Both the position numbers and the translations under genes were made by a program. The notes beneath the pieces were generated by a model. The model worked only from the letters and a program-made list of their open reading frames with translations. It searched no databases and was not told the origin of the DNA. From Planctomycetota bacterium (lineage in GTDB: Bacteria; Planctomycetota; Phycisphaerae; Sedimentisphaerales; Anaerobacaceae), in NCBI GenBank assembly GCA_013349615.1, contig DUZJ01000002.1, positions 1 through 64,000 on the forward strand: 64,000 bases of DNA, read 5' to 3'. This document shows, one piece after another, positions 1,422-35,759 of the stretch. How positions within the stretch are numbered: position 1 is the stretch's first letter; each line of letters opens with the position of its first letter.

Positions 1422-1450
1422 ATATTCGATATACATAGTACCACATTTCT

Positions 1451-1454: not shown

Positions 1455-1462
1455 ATTAGAAA

Positions 1463-4400
1463 GTGAAGCGACATATCCCTACAGGACCAGAAGCCCAAGG
1501 GTTTCTGGTTTGGTCATCGAGGGGGTCCAGAGCACGTTTATATGCTCTGGTAGCCCTGATTTTTGTATGCGCACAAATAACCTTTTCCCGGGTAATTGAT
1601 TTGCCCGGGCTGCCTGATGCCGAAAATGACGTTCCTTATAAGCGGGGCGAGTTAATAGTGCGTTTTACCGACACAGGTCCTCATTCGCCGATTCGCAGGG
1701 CGCTGCCGGGTCCATTGACAAATCGGGCGGTAAAGAATGTCATTTCGAGCCTGGCCGTTCCAGGAGCTGCTGTGGGTAACGAGTTTGACCGCATAGTTCC
1801 GGGCCTGACTTTGATAAAACTGCCTGGGCGTACTTCAGTTACAGAGGCACTTTTGCATTTCAGGCGGTCGATGGACGTATTATATGTCGAGCCGAACTAC
1901 AAATTGAAGTTATATGCCACCCACCCGAATGACCCTATGTTTCCTGAGCTTTGGGGTATGCACAACACGGGCCAGACCGGCGGCACTGAGAATGCAGACA
2001 TTGACGCGCCCGAGGCCTGGGATATTCATACCGGCGACCCCAACATCATCGTAGCGGTTATTGACACCGGTGTTGACTATAACCACCCTGACCTTGCAGC
2101 TAATATGTGGATAAATCCCGGAGAAGACCAGCCGCCTTACGGGATAGTGGACGCTAATGATGTTGACGCTAACGATAATGACCTCAATGGTTATATAGAC
2201 GACATTTACGGCTATGATTTTGCCGGCGATGACATAAGCGACCCAAATGATGACGACAATAACCCGATGGATGCTCATGGCCATGGCACTCAAGTTGCGG
2301 GGATTATCGGTGCGGTTGGTGATAACAATGAAGGTGTTGTAGGTGTCTGCTGGAATGTCAGAATAATGGCTCTGAAAGTTGTTGCCGATAACGGAGAGCT
2401 GGACCCTAACCTATTCGTCGATGATGCGGTTAAAGCTATTCAGTATGCCATCGGAAAGAACGCCAATATTATAAATGCCTCTTGGGGAACTGACGCCAAT
2501 TCACAGACACTTTATGATGCTATTAAAGCTGCTGATGCGAATGGGATACTTTTCGTAGCTGCCGCGGGTGACTACTCGTTCGAGACTCCCTGGTTTAACA
2601 ATGATGCCAATGCAGTTTACCCGGCAAGCTACGAGCTGGACAACATCATTTCCGTGATGGCGACAGATGATACTGACAATCGCGACTACTCTTCCCATTA
2701 TGGAGCGACTTCGGTTGATATCGCCGCTCCCGGAAGTTGGATATACTCCTGTGTTCCGGGTGGTGGTTATTCTTATTTAAACGGCACATCGGCGGCTGCC
2801 CCTCACGTGGCTGGCGCTGCTGCACTGCTATGGTCAACTGACCCAAACCTGACACAAAGGCAAGTCAAACAAAAGCTCGTGCATCCTTTGGTTGTAGAGC
2901 AGCTTCCTGCTTTGCAGGGACATTGTGCCTCAGGCGGCCGGCTCAACCTTTTCAAAGTCCTGGACATGCCGCCAGTTGGGGGACGGGTCGTAAATACGTC
3001 AAAACCATACAATCCCATTGATCCAAATACATACTGGGAAAGTATTCAGGCAGCAATAGATGCCAATGATACCAACGATGGACATGTACTAATAGCCGAT
3101 GCCGCAATTTACGATGAAAATATTGATTTTTCAGGCAAGAGTATAACGCTGCGCAGCGGCAACATTTACGACTACAATGACGCCAATATCAATCCTGAAC
3201 GTACAATTATTTACGGTCAAAACCATGGCTCAGTTGTAACTTTCCAGAAAAATGAAGGTCCAAACACGGTACTAAAAGGATTCACAATCACCGGTGGCCT
3301 GGCCGAATACGGCGGTGGTATCGATTGCTATGATGCGTCACCAACAATTACCGACTGTATTATTACTAACAATACCGCGGACTATGGCGGTGGAATCGGA
3401 TGCTATAATGCGTCACCAACGATTACCGACTGTATTATTACCGGTAATACCGCGTTGCATTATGGCGGTGGTATCGAATGCGATAGTGGTTCACCAACAA
3501 TTACCGACTGTAATATTTCTAACAATACCGCGGTGTACTATGGCGGTGGAATCGACTGCTATTACGGCTCTCCCACGATTATAAACTGCACCATTAACAA
3601 CAACCGAACTTCCGACTACCTTAGTATCGGCGGCGGTGTGAATTGTGAGCAGGCCTCTCCAACGATTGCTCACTGCACTATCAGCAACAATTCGGCAGAG
3701 AAAGACGGCGGCGGAGTAGCATGTTATTATTCAGATCCAAATATCTTCAACTGTTTCATTCTCAATAATTCAGCAACATACCTAAGCGGCGGAATTGACT
3801 GTGAGACTTCGTCGCCCACTATTACCAACTGCACCATTGTTAGCAACGCTGCTGCAGAGGGCGGCGGCATTTTTGCCGAGACAGACTCTTTTCCGATAAT
3901 TACAAACTGCATCCTCTGGGACAATTCTGTTAAGGACCTTTTTGGATGTTCAGCGACATACTCCTGCATCCAGGAAGCGCACGCCGGTACAGGCAACACC
4001 AAAGCAGACCCGTTATTTTTAACCGGCCCGCGAGGTGACTACTATCTAAGCCAAACTCCCAGACAGTTGGACCCAAGCCCGTGCGTCGATGCCGGAAGCA
4101 CTGATGCCAATGACCCGAATCTGCCGTTGGATATGTACACGACAAGGACGGATGGTGACGTCAATGACCCGAATACCTTTGATGTTAATACCGTTGATAT
4201 GGGTGCTCATTACGCACCTGCAACGATTGAGTATTTCGCGTTAGACGTTATTGTGAAAGAAGATGCTAACGATCCCGGCATCCATGGCTCTGTGCATTTG
4301 GAACCCAACAGCGTCATGTATCCAAAATACTCAGTTATACGGCTCGAAGCACACCCGAAACAGGACTATCGTGTCAGGTCATGGACGGGCACTGATGGCG

Positions 4401-7400
4401 TTCCCTTCCTGGATACTGGTGATCCCAACCACAATACCGTTACTATGATTGCTGACGTCAACGTTACGGTTGAATTCGAGAGTATTCCCTACTACACGCT
4501 GCGTACTGATGTTATGGGCGGCCACGGAACAATCTCGCCCAACCTCAGAAGAGGTAAAGAATATAGGGATGGCACCGTGATACCGCTTACAGCAACGCCT
4601 GAGCTAAACTACATTGTTGATATATGGGCCGGTACCGATGATGACACATCCTGGGCCAACAGCAATACCGTGACAATGGATGCAAACAAGGTGGTTACCG
4701 TTTCATTCAGGCAACCACAGAGCTTTTACGTTCCGGGGCAATATACCAGTATCTCGGCCGCAATAAGTGCTGCCTACAGCCATGGTGACAAAATCGTTGT
4801 CGCAGCCGGTACTTACGGGGGTGGTAGCTTTCAGGGTAAGGCAATTACCATCGCCAGCGAACATCCGGACGACCCTTGTTGTGTTGCTGCCACCATCATT
4901 AGTGGGCGTTTTATCTTCGCAAATAATGAGGGCCGGGATTCAGTGGTTGACGGCTTTACTATTCAAGGCAACGGTGACCCGGGACCTGGTGATCCCTGGG
5001 GTGATGAGGATAATGGGGTCGGCGTCCCAGGCTCTAATTCTCTTGGCGGGGCGATATACTGTTCGGCTGGAAGCAGCCCAACCTTGTCCCATTTAGTTAT
5101 CAGGGACGTTGTCGCCCGCGGCGGCAGGGGGCAGGATGGCGCTTATATTTTTGACCCTCACGATGGCCCTCCCGACCCTCCAGACCAGTTGGATCCCCTT
5201 GATCCCTTGCCCGACCCTAACGCTCCTGAGCCCAACGACCCCGTTACCATAATCAAGTGGCCACAACCACCGGTGCCTTTCGGTCCTTCGCGTCCGGACT
5301 ATTACGTTGGATGGCACGAAGAGACCCAGGAGCCTCCTCCTGCAAGGGTGTTGGTAGCTGATAACTTTTTGTGCGATACTAATGACCCGATAACGGCGAT
5401 TCGCTGGTGGGGTTCTCTGAGTGGCTTTAGCGGCGACAGGGATGAGGTTCCGAACAGTGGATTTCCTGACGAGTTCCGTATAACTATTTGGGCTAACGAG
5501 CCTAACGACGCGAACTATACTTTTAGTCGTCCGGGTCAAAATATTCATTCGTTCGAGTTCGCGAGTCCAGCACCTACCTGGTATGGCTGGGAGATTGACC
5601 CGAATAACCCGAGTGCCCCGAATAATTTGACTAAATTCCAGATGGAGTATGCACTTGACCCTAACGAGGTCTGGGTCCAGCCGGATGTTAATGGAATCTA
5701 CTGGCTTAGTATCGAGTCAATTTATAATCAAGCTCCAGGTCCCAACGATCCCGTGTGGGGTTGGGAAACTCGCGAGCTGAATCCTGATTTCCCTGATGGC
5801 AATGGTGCTATACGTTACAATTTTGAAACTAACATTTTCGAACGTATAGAGTTTGGTGGTACACCGTACGATTTGAGCTTTGAGCTGGAATATACTCCAG
5901 CTATTGAACCAATCGATGGCGAGGACGGTCAGGACGGCCTGCCCGGCATCCCCGGTATTCCCGGCCCGAATGGCATCCCCGGCGCTAACGGCTTTGATGG
6001 GGGTAATGGCGGCGATGCCTACGGTGGCGCGATGTACTTCGACGCCAATTGCAGTCCGCTCATTACGTATTGTACAATTATCAACTGCCAGGCCCTCGGC
6101 GGCTATGCCGGATACGGCGGCCAGGGTCGGGATGGCCAGGGCGGTGGCAATGGTCAGATTGGTCAGGCCGGCCAGGCCGGCCAGAACGGCGGCCCGGGCG
6201 CCAACGGCGGAGCGGACGGAGCAGGCGGCGATGGCGGTGCCGGCGGCGCCGGCGGTGCCGGAGGAAGAGGCGGTGCCGGAGGAAGAGGCGGTAATGGCGG
6301 TCAGGGCGGCGAAGCCTTAGGAGGTGCGATATATTTCGGCCCGAGGTGCACACCGACAATACGGTACTTAACAATTACCGATTGCTGGACAAACCAGGGC
6401 TTGGGTGCGGCTGGCGGAGATGCAGGCAACGGCGGCAACGGCGGTAATGGTGCGCCTGGAGGCGCAGGTGGCGCTGCCGGTACAGGCAATCCGGATGGTC
6501 AGGATGGTGCCGATGGCGCCGACGGTGTCGGCGGCTATGGGGGTGACGGCGGTAACCAGTATTTATACTATCCTTATTATCTCGATGACCGTGGCAGCAA
6601 CATGGGCCCCAACGGCGAACGGTCACAGGCTGGTGCTATATTCTACGGCCGAGACTGTAATACAATCGTTACGGATACCGTAATAAGTTACTGTTACACT
6701 GATACTTCTGCACCAACGACTTCTTATGCCGGTGGCGATGGCGGCAATGGCGGCAATGGCGGCAATGGCGCAGGAGATGCACGCGGCGGCAACGGCGGCC
6801 ACGGCGGCTGGGGCGGTGGCGGCGGACCCGGCGACGGTGACCCTGGCTCTGGCGGCAGCGCCGGCGGCGGCGGCAATAATGACGCGCCAGACGGTGCAGA
6901 TGGACCAGATGGTTATATTATGGGAAGCCCCCTTACCGGCTATGGCGGTGCTAATTATTATGATGCCAACTGTGCAGCCGACTTTAATAACTACATAGTA
7001 AGCTATAATTTAACAGGATATCGAACGGATTTAGCGGTGGAAGTATATGGATTATATAATGGCGGGGGTGAGTACTACAACTCGCTGGCCACGGTCCGGA
7101 TGAACAACTGTCAATTTATTGGCAACTCGGGCTACTACGGAGGCGCCCAGTATTTTAGTCCGTCGTTTGTGTTGGAAGCTAACGACTGTAACTACGTTAA
7201 TAATACAGCCAGAGGCTACGGCGGCGCGCTGTACTGGCCGTCGAGGGGTACAGTGGAAATCAACAACAGTAGATTCATCGGCAATTCAGCTACAGTTGGC
7301 TGGGGCGGCGCACTGTACGGAGGTGGACAACTCCTATACACCGGGTATTGGGACCCTAACACGGGTGAATATGTTTATTACTACTACATGTACAATAGCA

Positions 7401-10400
7401 GCAACATAGCAATCAATAGGAGTCAATTCATCGGCAACTCTGCGCTGTACGGATTCGGAGGCGCTATCTACTGGTACGGTGATGGTTCGGATGTCTCAAT
7501 TCTGGACAGCACGGTCAACAACAATATCGCCGAACACGGTGGTGGTATGTTCTGGAGCAGCGGAGACCCTGAAATTATTGGCTGTACCATCAAAGGTAAT
7601 CAGGCCCTGGGCACCTATATGAGTATGGAGGGATATTATGACAACTTCTATGGCGGCGGCGGCGGGATGCTCTCCTGGTCATCCGCGCCGAGGATTGAGA
7701 ACTGCTTCATAAGCGATAATACCGCGTCCGGGTCCGGCGGTGGTGTGTACTTCGGTGGAGACGCCAATGTGCCGATACTTAAGAACTGCCTGGTCAAAGG
7801 TAACTCGGCCGTGCTGGACGGTGGCGGTATCGTTTCCTACTGGTACGTAACGCCGATGATCTCTAATTGTACAATCGTTGACAATACTGCGTTTGATCCT
7901 TTCAGCCCGCACCACGGAAGGGGCGGTGGTTTGTCCTGCTCCTACGAAAGTGAAACTTTCCTGACAGATAGTATTCTCTGGGGTAATACAGGTACTTTAG
8001 GCAACCAGATTGCAATCGGCAGCGATTACGAGCCAAACTATCCTGCTACTTTGAATGTATTACATTGCGACATCCAGGGCGGCAATAGTCCACAATCTAT
8101 CTATTATGAGCCGGGACGTACCCTCAACTGGCTCGGCGTTAATATCGATGATGACCCGCTCTTTGTCATGCCATACTATTACCTCAGTCAGACAGAGGCT
8201 GGGCAGGCTGCAGACAGCCCCTGTGTCAATGCAGGAAGCGATTTGGCAACTGCCCTTGGCCTCAGTAACTATACAACTCGTTCCGACGGTGTGGGTGACT
8301 CAAATATGGTCGACATGGGCCTGCACTACCCGGCTGCAGATGGTCAGTATCAGTTAACTGTAAATGTTATCGGCACGCACGGTACGGTCCAGCCAAGCAG
8401 TGAATTGTTCAACAAATTCACCGTAGTGACATTAACGGCAAACGTGGACCCGGGCTACCGAGTCAGATGGATAGGAACCGATGACGATACGGTTTACAGC
8501 CTTACCAATACGGTAATGATGTATTCAGACCGGACCGTCACAGCCATAATAGAACAACCAGCTATCATCGAAGTACCCGGTGACTATCCCATAATCCAGG
8601 AGGCGATCGACGCCGCCGAGGATGGCGATACGATTGTCATAAACAGGGGCACTTACTCCAACTCACCACAGATACAGACAGGCATTGCCGGCACACTCGT
8701 CATCATTGACAAAGCTATTACAATAACCAGTATCAAGCCTGATGACCCCTGTACCGTAGCTGATACGATTATCGACTGTACTGGCTATGCTACTTATGGC
8801 ATAGTTATCTCTCAATGCGGTCCCGATACGGTCATAAACGGCCTGACTATCGCAAATAACAGGTGGGGTAGCTTGGATCGGGTGTCACCGGACGACCCCG
8901 GGGATGATGGCTTGATTGGCGTGGACATCGGGGCTGCCGGGATTCTGGTTGATGCAGGTGCAAGCCCCACTATTCTGAATTGTATCATTCGGGACTGCCG
9001 GATGACGGCCGGCGAAGCCAGCAGCGCAAATGACGGCCCAGACTTTGATGACCCGATTGACCCGGATGATCCGGATTCGCCCCTATGGGGGGTCGGGCAG
9101 CCGGGTGGTAGAGGTGGTGACGGCGGCGATGCGTATGGGGGCGGCATTTATTGCGGTTACCGCAGCAGCCCAACTATCCGAAATTGTACTATTTCTAATG
9201 TCCAAATCATTGGTGGCAACGCAGGCTACGGTGCTCAGGGTGGCGACTCCGACGATGGCAACGATGCAGCTAATGGCGGCAACGGCGGTGATGGCGGGGG
9301 AGCTTACGGCGGCGGCATCTTCGTCGACTTTGAAAGTAGACCTGTCGTCTCGGACTGTACTATTATTAACTGTTCGGCTATCGGAGGTGATGCAAATGAT
9401 GCCGGAAGTGGTGGTAATACAAGCGGCGATCTCAGCTATGGTGGCGATGGGGGTGTCGGCGGTTACAACGGCCAAGCCTACGGCGGAGGAATCTACTTTG
9501 CCAATAATGTCATTGCTGCGGTTTCCAATTGCAGAGTCATCAACTGTTCTGCCACGGCCGGTGACGCAGGGGACGGCGGTGATTACGGAACCGGCGATTT
9601 TGTCGGGTCAGCCGGCTACGGTGGTGGATACGTTGGAGAATACTGGTTATACAGCGCCTATGGCGGGGCTGTATATACGGGGACAAACGGTATAATCACC
9701 TTCGAGGACTGCACGTTCAGCAATAACACTGTAACCGGAGGTATGAGCGGGATTGGCGGCGATCCGTGGCGCGGCCAGAGACCGCCGCCCGTATACAGTT
9801 ACCTTGTCCCGGTTTATGGAGCGGGTGTGTTCTGCGATAGCCACTCACGGACAGTATTTGTGGATTGCAATGTAGTTGGTAACTCTGCAGATGATGTTAC
9901 CGACCCCGCCGACCCAAATCAGTTGGTTTATCGTCTCAATCCTTACGTTAGTTTCGGCGGCGGTATCTGTCATATAGATGCTAACGAAGTTTCGATTACC
10001 GACTGCAACGTCAGCGACAATTACGCAACCATCGGCGGTGGTTTGTACTGGGATGAAGCCGACGACACCGTGGTGACCGGCTCGAGCTTCGCTAACAACT
10101 CGGCGTTCAAAGGCGGTGGTATCTATTGTGTTGATAGCGAGTCTGCAACAATCACAGGGTGTACAATCATAGACAATGAAGCGAATGAACCCGGAGGTGA
10201 AGGCGGCGGTGTATATTGCTCCTCAATACCGCTCTTAATCGCTGATAGTGAAATAAGATTTAATTATGCAGATTACTCTGGTGGTGGTTTGTATATGTCT
10301 GGTGGTGCATCAGAGACAAAAATACTCAGGAATTGTCTTATCACCAACAACACAGCCCGCAGAGACGGTGGAGGCATTTCGGCCAGTTGGCATAACGAAT

Positions 10401-11188
10401 TGACTGTATCCAATTGTACTATTCATAACAATACTGCTTACGATGTCAACGACCCCGATAATAGTGGATACGGGGGAGGACTGTACTGCTCATACGGAAG
10501 CTATACAGAAGTTATAGACAGCATCTTATGGCAGAATGAAGGCAGCAAAGGGTCGGAGATTTCAATCGGCACCGGCTTCGAATTCGACCCAAGACCGGCA
10601 ACTGTTAAAGTTTCGTGCAGCGATGTGGGTGGCTGGCAAAATCCTTTCGACCCCAACCAGATTGATCCTGCCGTCGTCTTTGTTGATGTAAACTGTGTCC
10701 TGGACTGGGACTTCGGCAATGTCATCGACGCCGATCCGCTCTTTGTCAGTGGTTACTATCTGAGCCAGATTGCAGCCGGACAGTTTATGAACAGCCAATG
10801 CGTGGATCCTAATGGAAGTCGTGACTCGAACGATCCGAATGTCGGTATGTACCCGGACAAATATACAACACGTACAGACTATGTCGGCGACGTCAACCGT
10901 GTCGATATGGGTTACCATTATCCGTTAACTTCCATGGTCCTTTTGAGCGTTAGTGTGGTTGATGCTAACGGGATGGTCATCACTGACCCGAATTATATAG
11001 TCGTTCCAAGTAACAGGCATTATCCAATGGGCGCGGTGGCACAGATCACAGCGTCACCAGCCGACCCGAACTATCAGGTCAAGAAGTGGACGGGCACCAA
11101 TAACGATGCAAGTACGGCCTTCACAAATATCGTAATAATGGATGGTGACAAGTATGTTACGGTTGAGTTCGAGCTTGCTCCCTGGTAG
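1463..11188 (+). CDS. Giant secreted subtilisin/beta-helix protein, fragment 1 (signal peptide, S8 domain, modules 1-3)
   Basis: This 3241-residue ORF starts at GTG 1463. Residues about 20-45 form a signal peptide (RLYALVALIFVCAQITFS). An I9-like propeptide region and a subtilisin domain follow, then three beta-helix modules ending at VDMGAHY (~4200), VDMGLHY (~8315) and VDMGYHY (~10905). The modules carry parallel beta-helix turns of the form SPTITDCIITNNTA-GGGI, repeated at about 20-30 residues. This is the fold seen in pectate-lyase-like and polymorphic outer-membrane proteins, so the protein should be an extended surface or secreted fibre. Module 2 holds a distinct non-helical insert (about 5270-5905) and very Gly-rich stretches. 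The ORF ends at a TAG that appears to replace a Tyr codon, so it is a fragment of the giant gene. The substrate or partner is unknown. Confidence 0.85.
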   Translation: MKRHIPTGPEAQGFLVWSSRGSRARLYALVALIFVCAQITFSRVIDLPGLPDAENDVPYKRGELIVRFTDTGPHSPIRRALPGPLTNRAVKNVISSLAVPGAAVGNEFDRIVPGLTLIKLPGRTSVTEALLHFRRSMDVLYVEPNYKLKLYATHPNDPMFPELWGMHNTGQTGGTENADIDAPEAWDIHTGDPNIIVAVIDTGVDYNHPDLAANMWINPGEDQPPYGIVDANDVDANDNDLNGYIDDIYGYDFAGDDISDPNDDDNNPMDAHGHGTQVAGIIGAVGDNNEGVVGVCWNVRIMALKVVADNGELDPNLFVDDAVKAIQYAIGKNANIINASWGTDANSQTLYDAIKAADANGILFVAAAGDYSFETPWFNNDANAVYPASYELDNIISVMATDDTDNRDYSSHYGATSVDIAAPGSWIYSCVPGGGYSYLNGTSAAAPHVAGAAALLWSTDPNLTQRQVKQKLVHPLVVEQLPALQGHCASGGRLNLFKVLDMPPVGGRVVNTSKPYNPIDPNTYWESIQAAIDANDTNDGHVLIADAAIYDENIDFSGKSITLRSGNIYDYNDANINPERTIIYGQNHGSVVTFQKNEGPNTVLKGFTITGGLAEYGGGIDCYDASPTITDCIITNNTADYGGGIGCYNASPTITDCIITGNTALHYGGGIECDSGSPTITDCNISNNTAVYYGGGIDCYYGSPTIINCTINNNRTSDYLSIGGGVNCEQASPTIAHCTISNNSAEKDGGGVACYYSDPNIFNCFILNNSATYLSGGIDCETSSPTITNCTIVSNAAAEGGGIFAETDSFPIITNCILWDNSVKDLFGCSATYSCIQEAHAGTGNTKADPLFLTGPRGDYYLSQTPRQLDPSPCVDAGSTDANDPNLPLDMYTTRTDGDVNDPNTFDVNTVDMGAHYAPATIEYFALDVIVKEDANDPGIHGSVHLEPNSVMYPKYSVIRLEAHPKQDYRVRSWTGTDGVPFLDTGDPNHNTVTMIADVNVTVEFESIPYYTLRTDVMGGHGTISPNLRRGKEYRDGTVIPLTATPELNYIVDIWAGTDDDTSWANSNTVTMDANKVVTVSFRQPQSFYVPGQYTSISAAISAAYSHGDKIVVAAGTYGGGSFQGKAITIASEHPDDPCCVAATIISGRFIFANNEGRDSVVDGFTIQGNGDPGPGDPWGDEDNGVGVPGSNSLGGAIYCSAGSSPTLSHLVIRDVVARGGRGQDGAYIFDPHDGPPDPPDQLDPLDPLPDPNAPEPNDPVTIIKWPQPPVPFGPSRPDYYVGWHEETQEPPPARVLVADNFLCDTNDPITAIRWWGSLSGFSGDRDEVPNSGFPDEFRITIWANEPNDANYTFSRPGQNIHSFEFASPAPTWYGWEIDPNNPSAPNNLTKFQMEYALDPNEVWVQPDVNGIYWLSIESIYNQAPGPNDPVWGWETRELNPDFPDGNGAIRYNFETNIFERIEFGGTPYDLSFELEYTPAIEPIDGEDGQDGLPGIPGIPGPNGIPGANGFDGGNGGDAYGGAMYFDANCSPLITYCTIINCQALGGYAGYGGQGRDGQGGGNGQIGQAGQAGQNGGPGANGGADGAGGDGGAGGAGGAGGRGGAGGRGGNGGQGGEALGGAIYFGPRCTPTIRYLTITDCWTNQGLGAAGGDAGNGGNGGNGAPGGAGGAAGTGNPDGQDGADGADGVGGYGGDGGNQYLYYPYYLDDRGSNMGPNGERSQAGAIFYGRDCNTIVTDTVISYCYTDTSAPTTSYAGGDGGNGGNGGNGAGDARGGNGGHGGWGGGGGPGDGDPGSGGSAGGGGNNDAPDGADGPDGYIMGSPLTGYGGANYYDANCAADFNNYIVSYNLTGYRTDLAVEVYGLYNGGGEYYNSLATVRMNNCQFIGNSGYYGGAQYFSPSFVLEANDCNYVNNTARGYGGALYWPSRGTVEINNSRFIGNSATVGWGGALYGGGQLLYTGYWDPNTGEYVYYYYMYNSSNIAINRSQFIGNSALYGFGGAIYWYGDGSDVSILDSTVNNNIAEHGGGMFWSSGDPEIIGCTIKGNQALGTYMSMEGYYDNFYGGGGGMLSWSSAPRIENCFISDNTASGSGGGVYFGGDANVPILKNCLVKGNSAVLDGGGIVSYWYVTPMISNCTIVDNTAFDPFSPHHGRGGGLSCSYESETFLTDSILWGNTGTLGNQIAIGSDYEPNYPATLNVLHCDIQGGNSPQSIYYEPGRTLNWLGVNIDDDPLFVMPYYYLSQTEAGQAADSPCVNAGSDLATALGLSNYTTRSDGVGDSNMVDMGLHYPAADGQYQLTVNVIGTHGTVQPSSELFNKFTVVTLTANVDPGYRVRWIGTDDDTVYSLTNTVMMYSDRTVTAIIEQPAIIEVPGDYPIIQEAIDAAEDGDTIVINRGTYSNSPQIQTGIAGTLVIIDKAITITSIKPDDPCTVADTIIDCTGYATYGIVISQCGPDTVINGLTIANNRWGSLDRVSPDDPGDDGLIGVDIGAAGILVDAGASPTILNCIIRDCRMTAGEASSANDGPDFDDPIDPDDPDSPLWGVGQPGGRGGDGGDAYGGGIYCGYRSSPTIRNCTISNVQIIGGNAGYGAQGGDSDDGNDAANGGNGGDGGGAYGGGIFVDFESRPVVSDCTIINCSAIGGDANDAGSGGNTSGDLSYGGDGGVGGYNGQAYGGGIYFANNVIAAVSNCRVINCSATAGDAGDGGDYGTGDFVGSAGYGGGYVGEYWLYSAYGGAVYTGTNGIITFEDCTFSNNTVTGGMSGIGGDPWRGQRPPPVYSYLVPVYGAGVFCDSHSRTVFVDCNVVGNSADDVTDPADPNQLVYRLNPYVSFGGGICHIDANEVSITDCNVSDNYATIGGGLYWDEADDTVVTGSSFANNSAFKGGGIYCVDSESATITGCTIIDNEANEPGGEGGGVYCSSIPLLIADSEIRFNYADYSGGGLYMSGGASETKILRNCLITNNTARRDGGGISASWHNELTVSNCTIHNNTAYDVNDPDNSGYGGGLYCSYGSYTEVIDSILWQNEGSKGSEISIGTGFEFDPRPATVKVSCSDVGGWQNPFDPNQIDPAVVFVDVNCVLDWDFGNVIDADPLFVSGYYLSQIAAGQFMNSQCVDPNGSRDSNDPNVGMYPDKYTTRTDYVGDVNRVDMGYHYPLTSMVLLSVSVVDANGMVITDPNYIVVPSNRHYPMGAVAQITASPADPNYQVKKWTGTNNDASTAFTNIVIMDGDKYVTVEFELAPW
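1880..2980 (+). other. Domain: subtilisin (S8) protease 1, N-terminal
   Basis: The catalytic triad reads as Asp201 (VIDTGVDYNHPDL), His274 (HGHGTQVAGI) and Ser443 (NGTSAAAPHVAG). The upstream GELIVRF...VLYVEPNY segment matches an inhibitor I9-type propeptide. The usual oxyanion Asn in AAGN is Asp here (FVAAAGDYSFETPW), a substitution also known in prohormone convertase 2. The domain is probably active or weakly active, and could process the giant protein itself. Confidence 0.88.
5270..5905 (+). other. Domain: non-helical globular insert in module 2, unassigned
   Basis: Between two beta-helix segments lies about 210 residues with no GGG-I-Y turns. Motifs include VLVADNFLCDTNDPITAIRW, WGSLSGFSGD, FRITIWANEPN, YGWEIDP and GIYWLSIESIY. 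The pattern (exposed Trp, ADNFLC, WGSL, IYWLSI) recalls a beta-sandwich domain found in secreted planctomycete proteins, but I cannot name a family with certainty. A Pro/Asp linker precedes it and a collagen-like stretch follows. Confidence 0.5.
5908..6910 (+). repeat. Collagen-like and glycine-rich low-complexity blocks in module 2
   Basis: GEDGQDGLPGIPGIPGPNGI (from about 5920) is a short Gly-X-Y run. It is followed by GGNGG/GGAGGAGG-rich blocks near 6100-6310, 6410-6570 and 6725-6900, separated by ordinary beta-helix turns (CTPTIRYLTITDCW). DNA is built from GGCGGCAAT/GGCGGTGCC triplets. These are probably flexible loops off the helix. They also create spurious Arg-rich ORFs in other frames. 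Confidence 0.8.
11186..11188 (+). other. In-frame TAG interrupting the giant gene
   Basis: GAGCTTGCTCCCTGGTAG here aligns with GAGCTTGCTCCCTGGTAC at about 34861, where the codon is Tyr. A third copy near 38445 also has TAC. Frame and domain (InlB-B-like repeat pair) continue without a gap on both sides. It is a point nonsense change or a base-call error. Confidence 0.9.
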
Positions 11189-11197
11189 CAGCTAACA

Positions 11198-14100
11198 GTG
11201 GTTGTGCTCGGTGGCCATGGTTCGGTCGAGCTCGATCCAAACAGCGATACCGGATTTTATCCCAACCATAAGAACGTGACGCTGAAAGCGAAACCCGATT
11301 CTCTCTATCGTGTCAAGGTCTGGACCGGCACGAATAATGATTTATCTTATGCTCTTACCAACACGGTGACCGTGGACGCAAACAAAACCGTCACAGTTGA
11401 GTTTGAGCCGGATGTTGTCGACAACTTGCTTGTTCCATTCGAATATGCTACGATTGATGAAGCCATAGCGGCCGCACGTTCTCGCGACAACATCATCGTT
11501 GCTCCGGGTGTTCAATACGTAAGCGACTCTAACGGCATCGACTTCCAGGGCAAGAGCGTCAAACTGATGTCTATTGACCCTGGTGATCCAAACGTTACAG
11601 CGCGCACGATAATTGACTGTGCCGGCAGCAAATACTACCCGCGCCGGGCCTTCCACTTCCACAATGGTGAGGACGCCAATACAATAGTGACGGGATTCAC
11701 TATCAGAAACGGTTTCATAACCGGTCCTGTGGGCCTGCCGGGACGCTCTTATACGCTAACTCCCCAGCCGTACGAGCCGATGACGACCGATGACCCACCA
11801 CCGCCGCGTGCCGAACGTGGGCGTGACGCCATCGGCGATGGTTTCGGCGGTGCAATACTCTGTGAGTATGCCAGCTCTCCAACCATCACGAACTGCGTGA
11901 TAACCGACTGCGTAGTCACCGGTGCCTATGGCGGCGATGGTGCGGAGGGCAGGTATGGTGGCTGGAGCTTCCTGCCCCCGAACAGTGTAGATTTGGAATC
12001 AACAGATGACGGTCAGTATGGCGGTCACGGTGGTACCGGCATGGGGAGAGGGTATGGCGGCGCTATCGCCTGTCTTTCTGGAAGTTGTCCAATCATTATG
12101 GATTGCACCATAAAAGATAACATTGCCAGAGGTGGCTGTGGCGGCGAGGGTGGAAACGGAGGTACCATCTACAATGGTGGGCTGGAAAGCTACGGCGGCA
12201 ACGGCGGAGATGCCATCGGTGATGGAATCGGTGGTGGTATTTACTGCGACGGCAATAGTACCCCCATCATCACGGATTGCAGCTTCATTAGTAACAGTGC
12301 CACAACAGGCCTTCCCGGAGACGGCGGTTTCTTAGGTGAAGGTGATGCGCGTGACCCACGTGCCAGGGATGGCTACCATGGCTATCCCACTCCCTTTGGC
12401 GGCGTAGTCGGCGGTGCAGCTTACTACGCAGCCAACACGGATCCGAACTTTACTAATTGTACGTTCATCAACAATAAGGCCTATGAAGGATATATGTCCT
12501 ACGAATACGTCACATACTACCTTACCCGGAAATATGTAGAGGATGTTCAAACGTACACATGGGCAGGCGGTCTGTATGCTGAGCCGAACAATACGGTTAC
12601 TCTCACCAACTGCGACTTCACAGGCAACCTCGGCGGCGCTGTCTTTATTGAATCAACCAGCATTGTCGACTTCAACGACAGTGTTTTCAAAGACAATGAG
12701 GCAACTACTCGATTCGGCTATGGTTCTCCTTATGGTCCTTACGGTCCTTATGGTCCTTATGGTCCTTACGGTCCTTATGGTCCTTACGATCCTTACGGTT
12801 ATCCATACGATCCGAATTATGATATTTATGGACAAAGCTTCCCGGCAACAGATGCCGGAGGCGGCGCTGTCTATATTGGCCCCGATTGTAACGGTGTAGA
12901 TATCCGGAACTGCGGCTTCCACGGTAACACTTCGGCCTATGACGGCGGCGCCATCGATTGCGCGAGTGACGCCGACTTCGCAAGCTGCTCGTTCGGCGGC
13001 AATATAGCCGGCAACAACGGTGGTGCAATAGATGCATATTATAATGATGTTAATGACCCCAACATAACCACAACATTAACGCTGAACTTCGAGGCCTGCA
13101 GCTTCGTCGAGAACCAGGCCGACAAAGGCATAGACGGGTGGGGCGGCGGAGTGCATTTCGAGGACTTCGACGCCGTATTCAATGATTGCTATTTCTTAGG
13201 TAACATTGCCAAAAACGGCGGCGGCTTGTATCTTTCATACGGGATTGTTAACTTCATTGGAGGAAGCATAAGTGAAAATAGAGCCTTAGGCGGCAGTGGT
13301 ATCGACGCCGGAGCTTATCGTCTCAGTCGTTTCGGCGTCATGGAGCCTATCGATATGAGCCTTGGTCTTGACTTCGGCGGTGGTCTTGTCTTGGCCAGGA
13401 CACGTACAACAATCGAAGACTGCACTCTCAGCGATAATGTTGTCGAGGGTATTAACGGCTCCGGCGGTGCAATCAGTTTCTATGGCGGAGAAGTCGCGCA
13501 CCTGGTCAGAAACTGCCTCATAACCGGTAACTCCGCCACTGTGAACGGTGGTGCGATTTCCACCAACTACTTCGCAACACCCGAAATCAGGAATTGTACC
13601 TTCAGCGGAAACTCCGCAGGCAGTTTCGGCGGCGCAATGTTCTACGACTGGAGTTCCGACCCGACTATTGTTGACTGCATATTCGAGAGCTGCAACAGCC
13701 ACGCAATATATGAGGAAGACTTTGGCAACGCATTTGTAATATATTCATTATTCCACAACAACCCGGACGGCGATTACGGGTGTAATGACCCTTGTGTAGG
13801 AACCCTTACCGGTCCTGAGCTTGATGCTAATAATATTGCCGGCGACCCGCTGTTTGTAACCGGGCTTTTCGGTGACTACTATCTTGACCAAGGCGCAAGT
13901 CCCGCCGTTGATAACGGCAGCGACGGTGCCGTTGACCTCGGCCTGGATACCTACACCACCAACCCCGACCCCAACGGCGCTACAGATATGGGCATAGTTG
14001 ACATCGGTTATCACTACTACGACCCATGTGCTGTTGGGCAATTTACGCTAACGGTCAACGTAATGGACGACCATGGTCGGTTCCGCGTCGAGCCTTCATC

Positions 14101-17100
14101 CGACCTGAACGCTGTGCGGCTGACGTTCACCGAGAGATACTCGGCCGGCACACCGGTAACACTAATTAGCATCCCCGACCCGGGCTACCGCACAATCTGG
14201 TCGGGAGCCGACAACGACGCGTCAAAGGGCAATACTGTTGTTGCGATGTGGTCCGACAGAGACGTCGCCCTCCGGTTCGACCAGGCAAGAACAATTGTTG
14301 TCGGCAGCGACCCCAATTACACCTCAATTCAACATGCTATCCACGCTGCAGGTGATGGCGATGTTGTCATCATCCCAGCAGGTACTTATGCTTCTCCGTA
14401 TCCGGGTTATCCACCTCCAATCATTACGGTCGTCGATAAGTCTATTGTCCTTACCGGCATGAATCCTGACGACCCCAATGTTGTTGCAGCCACGATTCTG
14501 GATGATTACTCCTTTACCATCTCGAACGCCGGCCCCGGGACGATAATTGACGGCCTCACCCTCAGGGACTGCAGGATGAGTATCAGTTCTTCCTCACCTA
14601 CCATCCGGAACTGTATCTTCACTGACTGTGTAGTTTTTGGCGGCAATGGTGGAAATTACGCAAACATAGATGATGATGGCTATGATGGCGGCAGCGCCCA
14701 GGGCGGCGCAATACACCTGCTTAACAGCTCACCACTGCTTCAGAATTGCGCCTTTACAGGCTGCTCAGTTACCGGCGGTAATGGAGGAAATGGCGACGGT
14801 GGTAATGATGACCATCCTTATGGATATGACGGCGGCTGGGGAGGATGGGCTTACGGCGGTGCCGTCTATTGTGGAGACAGAAGCAGCCCGAGATTTGAGA
14901 GCTGCTCATTCACAAACTGCTACGCTCAGGGCGGCAACGGCGGCAACGGCGGCAACAGCATTCGGGGCACACACGGCGGAAGGGGTGGTAACTGGCAATG
15001 GGATCCTACTCTCGAGACCGGTCCACGTACCTATCCTGACTGGTACTGGTGGGATGGGTGGCAATATGCTGATTATGACGTCGACGGTAATTACAGGTCC
15101 TACCTCGACGAACCATACGGTTATTACAAAGACTACTGGAAATACAGCGGGTATGGCGGCGCCGTCTACTGCGAAAATGACAGCTCACCACAATTCTTAG
15201 ACTGCAGCTTTGCCAACAACAGCACTTTTGGTGGCGTCTCCGGCGTAGGTGGCAGCAACTGGCCAACTCCGAACAGGAGCCTGAATATCGAAAACTTCGG
15301 CGGCGCAGTCTATGCCTGTTACAGAAGCAATCCCGAATTCGTAAACTGCTCTTTCAATAATAATACGGCTGATACATCAACCGTTGATGTACCCGACGAT
15401 ATCATTGTCAGCTATGGCGGTGCCGTCGCTTTCGAAAATGACTGCTCATTGACATTCGACGGCTGCACCATTTCCAGCGGCGAGGCCTGCATCGGCGGTG
15501 GAATATACGGGTCTATCGGCAGCCTCACGATTATAGACTGCAATTTCAGTGACAATATGGCTTATCATGGTGCAGGTTTATACTCCGTCGATGCCACGGG
15601 CACAATTACACAATCTGTCTTCGCTGACAACAATGCTTTCAGTGCTGTTGTTACTCCTGGGCCTAACGATCCCAACATACCTGTTGAGGTATTCGGCCGG
15701 GGTGGTGGTTATTATTGCCTCTCCTCTATCGTTGATATTACCGACAGCATCTTAACCGGAAACTGGGCACAAATATCCGGCGGAGCCATCTACTTCATCG
15801 GCAGCGACATGGACCTTTATGATAGTCCACTCCTGCACAACTGCCTGCTGACGGACAATAGCGCCGGCCGGGATGGCGGCGCCATATCATCGAACTGGTT
15901 CGCAGAACCGGTAATCTCCAATTGTACGATAGTCGGCAACCAGGTTACCGGCGGTGGTGGTATTGGATATGGCGGAGGCCTGTACAGCTCTTACGAGAGC
16001 AATGTGGACCTTATCAACAGCATTATCTGGGGCAATGACAGTAGTAATGAGGGCTCCCAGATTGCTGTCTGCACCGGCTTCGAGTTTGAACCGAGGCCGG
16101 CATCCGTTTCGGTTTCATACTGCGATATCGATGGCTGGCAGGAACCGAACGGTGCCGAATGGGTGAATCCTGATGCCGCCTTCGTTGATGTAGGGTGTTT
16201 CCTGAACTGGGACTTCAACAGTGTAATCGATTCCGAGCCGCTCTTTGTCAGTGGTTACCGTCTAAGTCAGATTGCTTCCGGGCAGGGCGCAAACAGCCCA
16301 TGCGTGGATGTCGGCAGTGAGTTAGCAAGTATTCTCGGTATGGACACATATACCACCCGCGCCGATGCGGTCAACGACGTCAATTTTGTCGATTTTGGTT
16401 ACCATTATTCTGTGTCCGGCGTGCAGTACGAATTAACAGTTGATATTATTGGGCCGGGTATAGTGGAGTATAAACCAGCCCCGCTTGATCCGAACGGCTT
16501 GTACAACGAGTATGCGATAGTAAGAGTGACAGGTATTCCTGAGCCCAACTACTACGTGAGAGGCTGGTACGATGTCAACGGCGTCCTGGTCTCCGGCAGC
16601 AAGAGACTTGAAGTAGTGATGGATTCAGATAAGGCCTTTACCGTTGAATTCGGGCTGCCAACCAAGATAGAAGTCTCAGGCGATCCGAATGCTCTCGCGC
16701 GGGCTGTCAATGCCGCAGGAAACGGCGATACACTCATTGTTGCCGCCGGTGCTTATAACGGCGATATCAACTTCGGCGGCAAACAGCTCAAATTGTTCAG
16801 TGTCAAACCTGACGACCCCAATGTCGTTGCTAATACAATTATTGACTGTGCAAACAACAGTCGCGGCTTTACATTCAATGGCGGCGAAGATGCCAATGTG
16901 GTTGTAGACGGCTTTACGATAATCAACGGCAGCGTTACCGGTGAGCCCGGAGGCGCCATATACATCGGTCCCAACAGTAAAGTGATTATTGTTAATATTT
17001 CTATAAGCAACTGCAGCGCCATCGGTGCTAATGGTGGTGCGATATTCATCGATGCTAACAGCAGTCCGACCATTACAAATGTTTCGATAAGCAACTGCGA

Positions 17101-20100
17101 TGCCAATGACGCGAACGGTGGAGCGATATACGTTGGTCCCTACGGCGATCTGACTCTTACGAGTGTCAGGATAAATAACTGCAGCGTTACCGATGCCAAC
17201 GGCGGCGGCATATATATCGACGCCAGCAGCACTGCGACACTGAGGGACTGTACGATCAGCAATTGCTCAGCTTTCGGCGGCTTTGGTGGCGGAGCCTTCT
17301 GCAACGTCAACAACTCGCTTGTATTTACCGACTGTAACTTCAGTGACAATGTAGCGACTTATGATGGCGGCGGCGTGTATTATGATACCAACTGCGTGTC
17401 AGAATTCACTGGATGTTCGTTTGTCAATAACGCAGCGGATGCATACGGTGGCGGAATCTACTCCGGCGCTAACTGCGAGTCAGACGTCAACGGCTGTGTG
17501 TTCATCAACAATACGGCGGTCGCGGATGGTGGTGGTATCCTTTATGACGCCAACAATGTAATACTCGCCCGTGACTGCAACTTTATAAGCAACTCGGCGA
17601 GCTACGGTGGTGGTTTGTGTTTCGACCCGAACTGCTCGGGAACAGTGGCTTCGGCCGTGTTGGAAGACAATATTGGAAACGAGGACGGCGGCGCAATATA
17701 CTTTGCCGATTGTAAGATACTGGTTACCGACTGCAACATTACCAACAATACCGCTCTTCGCGGCGGTGGTTTGTATTGCATTGATTCTCCGGAATCGCAA
17801 ATTGTTCGCTGTATAATCAGCTACAACGAAGCATACCGCATTGACTCTTTGGTCACTCAGGGCGGCGGTATATATTCGTTTGCCGGGCCGACGTTGATTG
17901 AAGATTGCGATATCAGTTACAATACGGCCAGGACGAGCGGTGGAGGTGTGTATCTGGCCGGTGAATATATGGGAGCTTATACCGGCCCGGTGCTGAAGAA
18001 CTGCCTTGTAACCAATAATACGGCAGGCGCAGATGGTGGCGGTATTTCGGTCAATTGGCAGTCTGAGCCCAACATTAGCAATTGTACCATAGCTCATAAC
18101 ACAGTAACCGACCCGAACGGTAATGGTGGAGGACTGTACTGCTCCTATAAAAGTAATGTCAAGGTTATCGACTCCGTCATTTGGGACAATAGAGGTAATG
18201 ACGGCGCTCAGTTTGCAGTAGCAAGCGGCGACCTGCCAAATCCACCACTGACTGCATCGCTTACGATTACATATAGCGACGTTGGGCCGCGGTACGATCC
18301 CAATGAGTCGCCTTTCTTTGCCCCTGAGGGTTCGGCTGGTGGTGGTGGTACGGGACAGACCGGCCCCGCTACTGTTCTTATAGATGGCCAAACCATTTAT
18401 GACCAATTTGACCAAGGCGAGCAGTGGGTAAAAGTAATTGTGAGCCTGATTGAACCTGCCGACCTGCGGGCAGTGACAAACTGGGATTCACCACAATCAG
18501 TTAGCGAGCTTCGAACCCAAATAGACAATCGCCAGGACTATGTTTTGTCTTCACTTACACCTGCCGAGTTCACATTGAAGCAACGTTATGAAAACCTGGC
18601 AGGTTTCTCGGGTGAGGTTACAATTGATGGTCTTAACAAGCTGCTCAACGATCCCCTGGTGGCGCATATCGAGCCGGACAGAATTTTGTACCCGGCCCTG
18701 GCTCAGGGTATACCTTTAATAAATGCAACAGCAGTTCGCCAGAACTACAACGGTGAAGGAATGGCCATCGCTATTTGTGACACCGGTGTTGACTATACTC
18801 ACCTAATGTTAGGTGGCGGCGGTTTTCCGAATGTTAAAGTAATTGGTGGTTATGATTTTGGTGACAACGACCCCGATCCAATCCCCGGTGGTATGACGTT
18901 TAGCACTGGGCATGGAACCTGCTGTGCCGGCTTAGCGGCTGGAGACCTGGGAGTAGTGGGTGATTATATTGGTGGAGTAGCCCACAATGCGAGAATCTAC
19001 GCATTGAAAATATCCTCTGATACCTATGATGGGGCATTTACCGGGGACATGGTTGCTGCGTGGGATTGGTGTGTAACTCACAAGAATGACGACCCGCAAA
19101 ATCCAATTATGGTGACGAGCACCAGCTTTGGTGGGGGGCGATTCTTCGACTCAGACACAGCCGACAATTTATCACCCGCTATGAAAGCCGCCGCCGACAA
19201 TGCGAATGCGATTGGCATCACTGTCCTTGCCGCATCCGGCAATGATGGCTTTACAGATTCACTTGGCTGGCCGGCAGCCATTTCGAGCGTTATTTCTGTT
19301 GGAGCGGTATACGATACGACAGATCAAGTGATAGGTTATTCCAACACGGCTGATTTCCTGGATATTCTCGCCCCATCTGAAGACGCTTATACCCTTGATA
19401 TTGTGGGTGCTGTTGGTTACGACCCCGGTGATTATTTCCCCTATTTCAATGGTACATCCGCTGCCTGTCCGTATGCAGCAGGAGCTGTAGCTTGCCTGCA
19501 GTCTGCTGCTGGAGGCAGCCTTTCAGCTCAAGCCGTGAGAAATTTACTGATAGCAACCGGTGACCCTGTTACAGATACTAAAGTTCCCATAACCAAGCCG
19601 CGAGTCAATCTGGGCGCGGCTGTCGCCGCTCTCTCATACGGAGCTGCAATCTATGTTGAGCAAGGTTGTATTCTCAACGGCTGGGTAGCTCCTGATACTA
19701 ATAGCTACTGGGGATGGGACGCCAACACCTGGGATCCCAATAGCCATGTCATCGAGGAAGACCCGAATTTCATCCACGGTTACTATCTAAGTCAGTACGA
19801 TGCCGGTCAGATAACAGAAAGCAATTGTGTCGATGGCGGTAGTACATGGGCGAGCAATGTTTTCGATATGAACACTTTTGACTATACCACACGCGTTGAC
19901 GGCGTCAACGATGTCAACACGGTCGATATGGGTTACCACTACACGGAAGCTGTTGCCAAGTATGAGCTGACTGTTATTGTGCCGGATGATGCAAACGACC
20001 CCGGCATCCACGGCATAGTCGACGTAAACGGTGTTGATCCAAACGGCGTCTGGTACTACGAAGGTACACAATTGACTCTCACGGCAATAGCTGAGCCAGG

Positions 20101-22549: not shown

Positions 22550-22560
22550 GACGGTTGTTG
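21850..22560 (+). other. Domain cargo 2: nidogen-like (NIDO) domain inside module 7
   Basis: The segment FGSTYRWLYVNNNGNVTFDG, then TSIIAPFFADVDTTMGNVVT, then RNAFGVNWIDVGY and NRFQLVIIDRSD is characteristic of NIDO extracellular domains. The end of the domain (LIYDSRNSSVPGRYVFSVRN) is in the next frame because of the deletion at about 22470. Flanks are RVTHSDIS upstream and IHVDNGCTLDGW downstream, the same site used by the other cargos. Confidence 0.8.
22469..22473 (+). other. One-base deletion joining ORF 2 and ORF 3
   Basis: In CAGTCCGACCGGTCTTATCT the upstream frame reads V-R-P-V-L-S. Adding one G (CCGGGT) gives V-R-P-G-L-I-Y-D-S-R-N, which continues the NIDO domain in the ORF 3 frame. 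No X-XXY-YYZ slippery heptamer is present. Confidence 0.8.
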
Positions 22561-25500
22561 GGCACCCCCATCCATGTAGACAATGGCTGCACGCTCGACG
22601 GCTGGGACCCCTACGATGCCAATAATCCCCTGGATCCCAATGACCCGGATGGACCATGGGAATTGTGGACAGAGAACATCTGGGATGACCCGAACTTTGT
22701 AGTAGGTCCTTTGGGCGATTACTACCTGAGTCAAAAAGATGCCGGCCCACTACAATTGGTTGACAGTAATTGCGTAGATGCCGGAAGCACTGACGCCAAT
22801 GACCCTAATATTAGCCTGCATACTTATACGACCAGGACCGACCTTATTCCTGACGCCAACAGGGTGGATTTGGGTTATCACTATCCACTGCGGGGGATAG
22901 AGCACGAGTTAATCCTTACTGTGATTGGCCCCGGTATGGTGATGATTGATCCCAACCAGCCTGACCCGTGCAATGTACTGTACGATCCCGACAACAACGT
23001 ATACACATACAAATACTACACAGGTACCGCACTTATCCTGACGGCAACGCCTGATCCAGGCTATCGGGTCAAGAGCTGGAATGGTACCGACAATGATCCA
23101 TCCTGGAATGTTAATACTCAGACATTAATAGTAGACGGCGACGAAACGATTGTCGTCGAGTTTGAGGAGGATAACACTACACTCCTCAAAGTCCCATTGG
23201 AGTATAGTACAATAGAGGAAGCTATAGCGGCTGCCCCTGAACATGACACCAAGATTATCCTGAGCAATGGAACCTACTATGTAAGTAATCCGGACGGCAT
23301 TGATTTCCAGGGCAAAAGTATCACTCTGATGTCCCTTGACCCGGCTGATCCGGTGGTAGTAGCGGCTACGGTTATTGACTGCGCGGGCAGCAGATACTCT
23401 CCGCGACGTGTTTTCCACTTCCAAAGCGGTGAAGGCCCCAACACAGTGGTTGATGGATTCACCATCAGAGGCGGTTTCATAGCCGGTCCAACCGGTCTGC
23501 CGGGACGTTTCGGAATGCTGGCTCCTGAACCCTACGAAGCCGTCTGGAGAGAGGATTTCCTCAATTCGCCTCTCCCGCCACGTGCCGAAGGCGGGGGAGA
23601 TGGCAGCGGCAGTGCCTATGGTGGTGGAATCCTGTGCGAAAACGCAAGCTCTCCCACCATCAAGAACTGTGTGATAACCGACTGTACTGTTGTCGGTGCT
23701 TACGGTGGTGACGGGGCCCCCGGGCGATCCGGAGGATTTAATTTCCTGCCGCCCGGAGCAACCGATGTGGAAGAAATTGACGACGGCCAGTGGGGTGGCA
23801 ACGGCGGCGACGGCATCGGATACGGTTACGGTGGCGGTATCGCCTGTCTGAGTCGGAGCTGTCCAATTATCACGAATTGCGTCATCCAAAATAATATTGC
23901 CAGAGGCGGCTGCGGCGGCAACGGCGGGATCGGCGGCATAGCCGGTGGTAGCGGGTACGCAAGTAACGGCGGAAATGGCGGAAATGCCATAGGTGACGGT
24001 ATCGGTGGCGGCATTTACTGCGAAAACGGAAGCGAGCCGGTCCTCACGAATTGCGAATTTATTAATAACCATGCGACGTCAGGTACCCCCGGAACCGGCG
24101 GTATTGCACGTTCGGGTGAGACGCGTGAATTAGTCTTCGGGCCAGTTGTTGCTGAAGGATTCGACGGACAGGCCTTTAGCTACGGCAATATAACCGGTGG
24201 TGCAATTTACTACCGAAACGCAGATGTAAACCTCACTGGTTTAACATTCTCGGGCAACCAAGCGTATCTACTGCAGCAAGTCATAGTTGACTCCGAGATA
24301 GTGCTCGTACCTACCATAGACGGCTCTTTCCAGTACCTTGCCTACACATACGAATCAATTCCCTCGTATACCACCGGCGGAGCTTTGGCCTCTGATATTC
24401 ACAATATTGTTACCGTTGTAAACTGTGAGTTTATAGCAAACCTCGGCGGTGCTGTCCGCATAGACGCGAACTGCATCGTGGACTTCGACAGATGTTTATT
24501 CGAGGACAACACTGAGGCAGCCGAGGGCGGCGCAATTACCATCGCCGAACTTGGTTTTGTAGATATTAACGACTGCACGTTCAAGTACAATTCCGCCAGC
24601 ACTAACGGCGGCGCCGTGCTTTGCAACAGCAACGCGGTCCTAACAGAGTGCTTGTTCCAGGGGAACCAGGCGGGGAACAATGGCGGTGCAATATATTCAT
24701 ATTATAATTATGCCGGCTCTGACCCCAACATTATCCCGACATTGAATATAAACCTGGAATCCTGCACCTTCTTAGGAAACGAAGCCGTTACCGGCGCAAC
24801 CGGGCAGGGAGGGGCCGTATTCTTCCGAGATTTCAATGCCATAATGAATAACTGCTACTTCATGGAGAACAGCGCCAGGAGCGGTGGCGGGCTGTGCTTC
24901 ACACTTGGAGACGTCACCATAACCGGAGGAACCATAAGTGGAAATACATCCATAGGCGGAGACTCTTACGAGATGGGTGGTGGGGTGCTATTCGCAAATA
25001 CTCATGCGGTAATTGAAAACTGTATCATAAAAGATAATGTCGCCGAGGGTGCTATTAGAGGCTCCGGCGGCGCAATCAGTTTCTACGGTGGACACCTCAC
25101 ACACCTGGTCAAAAACTGCCTTATAACGGGCAACTCTGCAACTGTTAATGGCGGTGCGATTTCAGCCTATCTTCACGCGACGCCCGAAATCCGGAACAGC
25201 ACATTCAGCGAAAATTCGGCTGGAACCCTCGGCGGCGCGATATTCTGTGACTGGGGTTCTGACCCAACAATTATCGACTCCATATTAGATAACTGCGATA
25301 GCCACGCTATTGTTGAAGAGGACGTCGGTAACGCAAGCGTATCAACTTCATTGTTCTACAACAATACCGACGGTGATTACGGTATTTATGACAGCAATAC
25401 AGGGTTGACTACTACTACTGCCGGCGTTGACCTCGATGTTACAAATATCGAAGGCGCCCCGCTGTTTGTGACCGGACCGTTCGGAGGTTACTATCTAAGT

Positions 25501-35343: not shown

Positions 35344-35759
35344 ATGGCTTTACCATAATCAATGGCAGGCTTACCGGTGCGTCCGGCGGCGCTATATATA
35401 TCGGTGCCGGCAGCAGTCCGACCATAGCAAATCTAATAATAAGAAATTGCGGTGTTACTTCTGCCAACGGTGGTGCGATATTCATCGGCTCCGGCAGCAG
35501 CTCGGCCATTGGGAATGTTGCGATAATTAGCTGTGCCGTCTCCGGCGGTGACGGTGGTGCAATATATGTCAGCACCGGCAGCAGTCCGAATTTCGTAGAC
35601 TTCACAATTAGCAATTGCTCTGTTACTCGCGGCTCTGGTGGTGCAGTTTACTGCAATGTCAACAGCTCTACCATATTTACCAACTGTACGTTCGGAAACA
35701 ACTCTGCGAGCTTCGGCAGCATAGTTGTTACCGACCCCAACGACCCGAATATCACCTGG

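What the first reader, a model, noticed from the sequence alone, without database searches (positions are those of the whole stretch)
1880..19645. Two complete subtilisin zymogens within one polypeptide
Both S8 domains have a propeptide-like region and a full Asp/His/Ser set, one at the N-terminus and one inside module 6. A giant fibre carrying its own proteases could self-process into modules, release its cargos, or digest protein substrates at the surface. The first domain has Asp in place of the oxyanion Asn (AAGD), so the two may differ in speed or timing.
Basis: partly seen in the sequence, partly recalled or inferred. Interest (0 to 1): 0.6.

Follow-up and report, generated by a model that had tools for sequence, protein, structure and literature searches.

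The report
Giant surface protein with two proteases
A huge secreted protein of a planctomycete bacterium carries two unrelated, apparently intact protein-cutting enzymes, each with its own built-in folding aid and inhibitor; close relatives keep them in one unbroken chain, whereas in this assembly a stop codon lies between them.

Summary
Both subtilase domains are real, each with a propeptide and an intact Asp/His/Ser set. S8-1 (2042-2887) follows a fervidolysin-type prodomain. S8-2 (18752-19561) follows an I9-type prodomain and sits in a cap loop of the sixth beta-helix module.

"Within one polypeptide" is not literally true here: an in-frame TAG at 11186-11188 separates them, and frameshifts follow near 22,450 and 35,250. 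These look like assembly error or recent damage. Five relatives hold the same gene at the same locus as one open frame (3,190-12,792 aa); all keep S8-1 and four keep one or two S8-2 copies. A neighbouring sulfatase gene is frameshifted too. dN/dS is about 0.24 on either side of the stop.

The Asp at the oxyanion position of S8-1 is real but derived: one congener shares it, the other four intact relatives have Asn.

S8-2 belongs to a family with free-standing secreted members, and its block seems to have been exchanged between congeners.

Most likely these are tethered extracellular proteases that mature by cutting their own propeptides; for S8-2 that cut would nick the giant mid-chain. No evidence was found for cutting of module linkers. 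New variant of a known kind.

The parts
1463..50903 (+). Whole coding unit of the giant beta-helix protein (17 modules), broken in this assembly by one stop and two frameshifts
   Evidence: ORFs; flanks of all three breaks match adjacent or nearly adjacent residues of intact relatives; relatives are single frames at the same locus
1463..1591 (+). Signal-peptide-like N-terminus
   Evidence: Seen by eye (hydrophobic stretch, also in relatives); no predictor was run
1625..1918 (+). S8-1 prodomain, fervidolysin type
   Evidence: PF22148, 25.0 bits against cut-off 21
2042..2887 (+). S8-1 catalytic domain; D 2063, H 2282, S 2789; Asp 2570 at the oxyanion position
   Evidence: PF00082, 200.7 bits; residues; deseasin MCP-01 E=9e-80
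11186..11188 (+). In-frame TAG between the two protease domains
   Evidence: no stop at the matching place in intact relatives
18404..18700 (+). S8-2 prodomain, inhibitor I9 type
   Evidence: PF05922, 26.4 bits against cut-off 21.2
18683..18706 (+). Predicted S8-2 processing junction ILYPAL/AQ; exact bond inferred
   Evidence: low-confidence loop between two well-predicted domains; Gln nearly invariant in 38 relatives, alignment
18752..19561 (+). S8-2 catalytic domain; D 18779, H 18911, N 19241, S 19457
   Evidence: PF00082, 119.6 bits; residues
18170..19775 (+). Cargo slot of module 6: end of beta-helix (DSVIWDN) to cap (EDPNF) with the S8-2 zymogen between
   Evidence: 529-residue gap against 61-81 residues in cargo-free modules
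22440..22470 (+). Frameshift region inside the nidogen-like domain
35240..35270 (+). Frameshift region at the start of a beta-helix

Best explanation
The locus encodes one giant, secreted, modular beta-helix protein that carries two unrelated subtilisin-type proteases as zymogens: a deseasin-like one at the N-terminus and an I9-type one inserted in the cap loop of the sixth module. After export each prodomain helps its own catalytic domain to fold and is then cut off by it. For S8-1 this removes only the N-terminal tail. For S8-2 the same cut would fall in mid-chain and leave two halves that could stay together through prodomain-protease contacts and packing within the module. The mature enzymes stay tethered to the giant and digest protein near the cell. 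Shown: domains, prodomains, triads, insertion site, conservation, purifying selection, one-chain state in relatives. Inferred: export, folding help, self-cutting, tethering, substrate. The breaks in this assembly are most likely sequence errors or recent lesions, not the normal state of the gene.
For: Domains and prodomains; triads kept in all orthologues aligned and in the wider S8-2 family wherever aligned; intact single frames in five relatives with S8-1 in five and S8-2-type in four; both sides of each break match adjacent or nearly adjacent residues of relatives; a neighbouring gene is also frameshifted; dN/dS 0.24-0.28 for S8-1 and 0.19-0.25 for S8-2; predicted S8-2 zymogen with pLDDT 88.6, a flexible loop at the junction, and catalytic domain matching subtilisins at TM 0.87; free-standing relatives with the same prodomain.
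Against: No activity or processing data. The window sequence itself has a stop between the domains. Location at the surface is inferred from domain types only. The two structure models disagree on docking of the S8-2 prodomain. Asp at the S8-1 oxyanion position might lower its activity.
Confidence: 0.6

Rival explanations
1. The proteases serve mainly to cut the giant itself: they cleave linkers between modules and release modules or cargo domains in a timed order.
For: Active-looking proteases within a many-domain chain; several cargo types in equivalent slots; one proposed role of STABLE protease is processing of its own filament (PMC5744192).
Against: Segments between beta-helices are InlB-like repeats, not obvious cleavage linkers; relatives have zero to two S8-2 copies, so the number of cutters does not follow the number of modules; the Asp/Asn difference is not conserved.
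Confidence: 0.15
2. In this organism the gene is decaying: the stop and frameshifts are real, and the two domains are made, if at all, from separate fragments.
For: TAG at 11186-11188 and two frameshifts; the downstream sulfatase is broken as well, which could also mean local decay.
Against: Low dN/dS after the stop, although this averages over the whole branch and cannot exclude a very recent loss; no start signal was identified for the downstream fragments; pfk and aroA in between and beyond are open.
Confidence: 0.15
3. The domains are inactive or nearly so and act as binding modules or scaffolds.
For: Asp at the oxyanion position of S8-1.
Against: Triads kept throughout the orthologues; prodomains kept too; PC2, described as a processing protease, has Asp at this position (PMC7144994).
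Confidence: 0.07
4. The TAG is read through or recoded, so that the full chain is made from this very sequence.
For: The frame is open on both sides of a single TAG, with constraint preserved after it.
Against: Intact relatives have no stop there; two frameshifts need another explanation; the frame that ends at the true 3' end also stops at TAG.
Confidence: 0.02

Closest known systems
Deseasin MCP-01 (Pseudoalteromonas sp. SM9913, PDB 3vv3)
   Same: S8-1 aligns with its catalytic domain over 347 residues, E=9e-80; extracellular subtilase
   Different: MCP-01 ends in a PKD domain that binds collagen (titles of papers cited in PMC11294657); here no PKD domain was found, and the protease is fused to a giant beta-helix protein
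Subtilisins with I9 prodomain (pro-subtilisin E 3whi, Tk-SP 3afg)
   Same: S8-2 has an I9 prodomain, the triad, Asn at the oxyanion position and the catalytic fold
   Different: S8-2 is inserted in mid-chain, in the cap loop of a beta-helix module, not secreted as a small free enzyme
STABLE protease on tetrabrachion of Staphylothermus marinus
   Same: Subtilisin-family protease held on a filamentous surface protein; processing of the filament and supply of peptides have both been proposed (PMC5744192)
   Different: STABLE is a separate protein bound to an archaeal stalk; here the proteases are part of the giant chain
Giant genes of PVC bacteria (Omnitrophota and others)
   Same: Very long extracellular proteins with beta-helix domains in the same superphylum, proposed to act on other cells or polymers (PMC12057145)
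   Different: Here several complete protease zymogens occupy defined slots; I found no paper describing this arrangement
CspB protease of Clostridium
   Same: Precedent for a subtilase whose prodomain stays tightly bound (PMC3567191)
   Different: Not part of a giant surface protein; used only as a model for how nicked halves could stay together

Membership tests
Peptidase family S8 (subtilases), S8-1 | S8 catalytic domain with Asp, His and Ser | tested here: met
   PF00082 200.7 bits; D 2063, H 2282, S 2789
Peptidase family S8 (subtilases), S8-1 | Asn at the oxyanion position (usual, not strictly required: PC2 has Asp) | tested here: not met
   Asp 2570, shared with G003 only; Asn in G004, G036, G020, G034; PC2
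Peptidase family S8 (subtilases), S8-1 | N-terminal propeptide | tested here: met
   PF22148, 25.0 bits against 21
Peptidase family S8 (subtilases), S8-2 | S8 catalytic domain with Asp, His, Ser and oxyanion Asn | tested here: met
   PF00082 119.6 bits; residues; fold
Peptidase family S8 (subtilases), S8-2 | I9-type propeptide | tested here: met
   PF05922, 26.4 bits against 21.2
Peptidase family S8 (subtilases), both | Proteolytic activity and self-processing | not testable with these tools
   needs purified protein
Deseasins (MCP-01 type), S8-1 | Catalytic domain of MCP-01 type | tested here: met
   E=9e-80 to 3vv3
Deseasins (MCP-01 type), S8-1 | C-terminal PKD domain | tested here: not met
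   no PKD match in the Pfam scans of the protein pieces
Surface filament with attached protease (tetrabrachion-STABLE type) | Location on the cell surface | not testable with these tools
   only a signal-like N-terminus seen by eye; no anchor identified

The most novel reading that the evidence does not exclude
The internal S8-2 zymogen is a built-in self-cutting hinge: cleavage of its propeptide programs a mid-chain break of a giant surface protein into two parts held together non-covalently, and the two or three subtilases of the chain act in sequence during its assembly.
Probability: 0.12. Interest if true: 0.7.

Novelty: new variant of a known kind. Interest (0 to 1): 0.45.

Why it matters
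Each part is of a known kind, but a complete protease zymogen inserted in a loop of a beta-helix, in mid-chain of a giant protein and repeated in related species, is an unusual arrangement. If the internal zymogen matures like other subtilases, the giant must cut itself, which bears on how such very large proteins are processed. The cargo slot also appears to be exchanged between species, which would let these bacteria change the enzymes they display. Both points can be tested with single modules in laboratory expression hosts.

Tried and rejected
(2) The second ORF as a separate gene: rejected, because its frame continues directly after the TAG between two repeats and relatives have no break. 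(3) NCBIfam for a specific protease type: only matches far below the curated cut-offs. (4) Asp at the oxyanion position as a family trait: rejected, limited to the window and G003 among the orthologues. (5) Docking of the S8-2 prodomain from structure models: the two models disagree, so it is not used as evidence. (7) Literature on subtilases inserted in beta-helix giants: nothing found; most subscription papers are not in the library.

Full report
WHAT IS THERE. The window lies in contig C2 of a 3.77 Mb draft genome in 157 contigs, 79.8% complete. Two Peptidase_S8 domains lie at 2042-2887 and 18752-19561.

ONE CHAIN OR TWO. The first domain lies in ORF 1463-11188, the second in ORF 11198-22549. 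They are in the same frame, separated by one TAG at 11186-11188. Further on the frame shifts near 22,450, inside a nidogen-like domain, and near 35,250, at the start of a beta-helix. At each of the three points the sequence on both sides matches adjacent or nearly adjacent residues of intact relatives: for the TAG, residues 3106-3184 and 3188-3265 of G003; for the second break, 4991-5104 and 5106-5183 of G004; for the third, for example 6143-6226 and 6227-6305 of G003. So 1463-50903 is one coding unit with three breaks.

RELATIVES ARE INTACT. At the same place, next to pfk and aroA and to an upstream gene that matches the window's secretin gene, G003 has one open frame of 11,548 aa, G004 12,792, G036 10,565, G034 6,362 and G020 3,190 (secretin). 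S8-1 is at the N-terminus of all five. S8-2-type domains are present in 1, 2, 2, 1 and 0 copies in the order G003, G004, G036, G034, G020. Of 161 genomes of the order, 52 have an S8-2 relative at E<=1e-40; G128 and G146 also show two copies listed with the same open-frame length, probably one frame each. The order as a whole is rich in S8 domains: 155 of 159 genomes at E<=1e-15.

ARE THE BREAKS REAL? A sulfatase-like gene downstream (52361-53907, minus strand), one 516-aa frame in G003, is also frameshifted in the window, whereas pfk and aroA are open. Frame breaks are thus not confined to the giant, which favours assembly or sequencing error; recent real lesions are not excluded. dN/dS is 0.284 (against G003) and 0.240 (G004) for S8-1 before the stop, and 0.251 (G004) and 0.186 (G003) for S8-2 after it.

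ZYMOGENS. Searched alone, the stretch before S8-1 matches PF22148 (25.0 bits, cut-off 21) and that before S8-2 matches PF05922 (26.4 bits, cut-off 21.2). With the long ORFs as query, I9 fell below its cut-off and PF22148 was not listed. Catalytic codons start at D 2063, H 2282, S 2789 and D 18779, H 18911, S 19457. S8-1 aligns to deseasin MCP-01, E=9e-80; S8-2 is most like subtilisin Carlsberg among solved structures, E=2.9e-21. The two domains match each other only weakly (28.6 bits), so they are not recent copies of one another.

OXYANION POSITION. S8-1 has Asp in the window and in G003, Asn in G004, G036, G020 and G034. Among fetched loci the aligned column otherwise reads Asn, except L017 (Ile, possibly a misalignment) and rows where it is not covered. 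Sharing with a separately assembled congener makes a base error unlikely. PC2 has Asp at this position (PMC7144994), so loss of activity cannot be assumed.

WHERE S8-2 SITS. The giant has 17 modules ending in a GYHY-type motif: 11 listed (whose last segment was read in the wrong frame) and 6 more visible. S8-2 is in the sixth. It lies between the last coils of the beta-helix (DSVIWDN...TYSDV) and the cap (IYVEQGC...EDPNF), a gap of 529 residues where modules without cargo have 61-81. The same slot holds a vWA domain (33574-34314), a nidogen-like domain, and a duplicated 300-aa domain; the copy scanned had no Pfam match. A model of the module part gives a beta-helix before the zymogen; the part after residue 676 is poorly predicted. 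The zymogen alone is predicted at mean pLDDT 88.6 with low confidence at 102-107 (ILYPAL), 343-349 and the C-terminus. The first of these is the junction between prodomain and protease; relatives mostly read (L/M)-(A/R)-Q-(A/G) there. Its likeness to the mature start of subtilisin (AQSVP) is from memory. The top structural matches of both models are unprocessed pro-subtilisin E, but the rmsd to it is 6.5 in one model and 18.7 in the other, so prodomain docking is open.

ORIGIN AND EXCHANGE. Free-standing relatives, with the protease 42-105 codons from the start of frames of 619-1,533 aa, occur in contigs labelled Phycisphaerae, Verrucomicrobiia, Aminicenantes, Desulfobacteraceae and Desulfobulbaceae (L046, L054, L058, L061-L065). 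So the cargo is a secreted protease type that sits in the giant with its own prodomain. At fourfold sites of conserved codons, S8-2 of the window differs from its G004 copy at 42 of 202 sites, against 163 of 356 for pfk plus aroA between the same genomes (Fisher p=2e-9). Window 15964-29834 is 82% identical to G004, while 245-10807 is 71-72%. This fits exchange of a multi-module block between congeners; it was not tested with a tree.

MECHANISM. Shown: two zymogens by sequence, constraint, position, one chain in relatives. Inferred: export, folding aided by the prodomain, self-cutting, tethered digestion. For S8-2, self-cutting would break the chain in a loop of a module; CspB is a precedent for a prodomain that stays bound (PMC3567191). 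The nearest functional analogue found is the STABLE protease on tetrabrachion, for which both filament processing and peptide supply have been proposed (PMC5744192).

VERDICT. Interest 0.45.

Noticed in passing
52361-53907 (-): Sulfatase-like gene downstream of the giant is frameshifted in the window but a single 516-aa frame in G003; used as a hint that the assembly has errors.
   Followed up: partly
15964-29834 (+): This block is 82% identical to G004 while 245-10807 is 71-72%; suggests exchange of a multi-module block between congeners.
   Followed up: partly
36969-37874 and 40368-41276 (+): Two related 300-aa cargo domains in equivalent slots; no Pfam match for the first copy, and no match in the five orthologues.
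   Followed up: partly
33574-34314 (+): vWA domain in the same kind of cargo slot as S8-2 (VWA_4 29.4 bits, cut-off 27).
   Followed up: partly
5228-5857 (+): DUF7901 domain in the first ORF, found in G003, G004 and G036 but not in G020 or G034 at the threshold used.
   Followed up: no
49713-49937 (+): Dockerin-like repeat near the C-terminus, conserved in all five orthologues; named by eye, no Pfam dockerin match.
   Followed up: no
60611-62410 (-): A third, separate subtilase gene in the window (78.2 bits).
   Followed up: no
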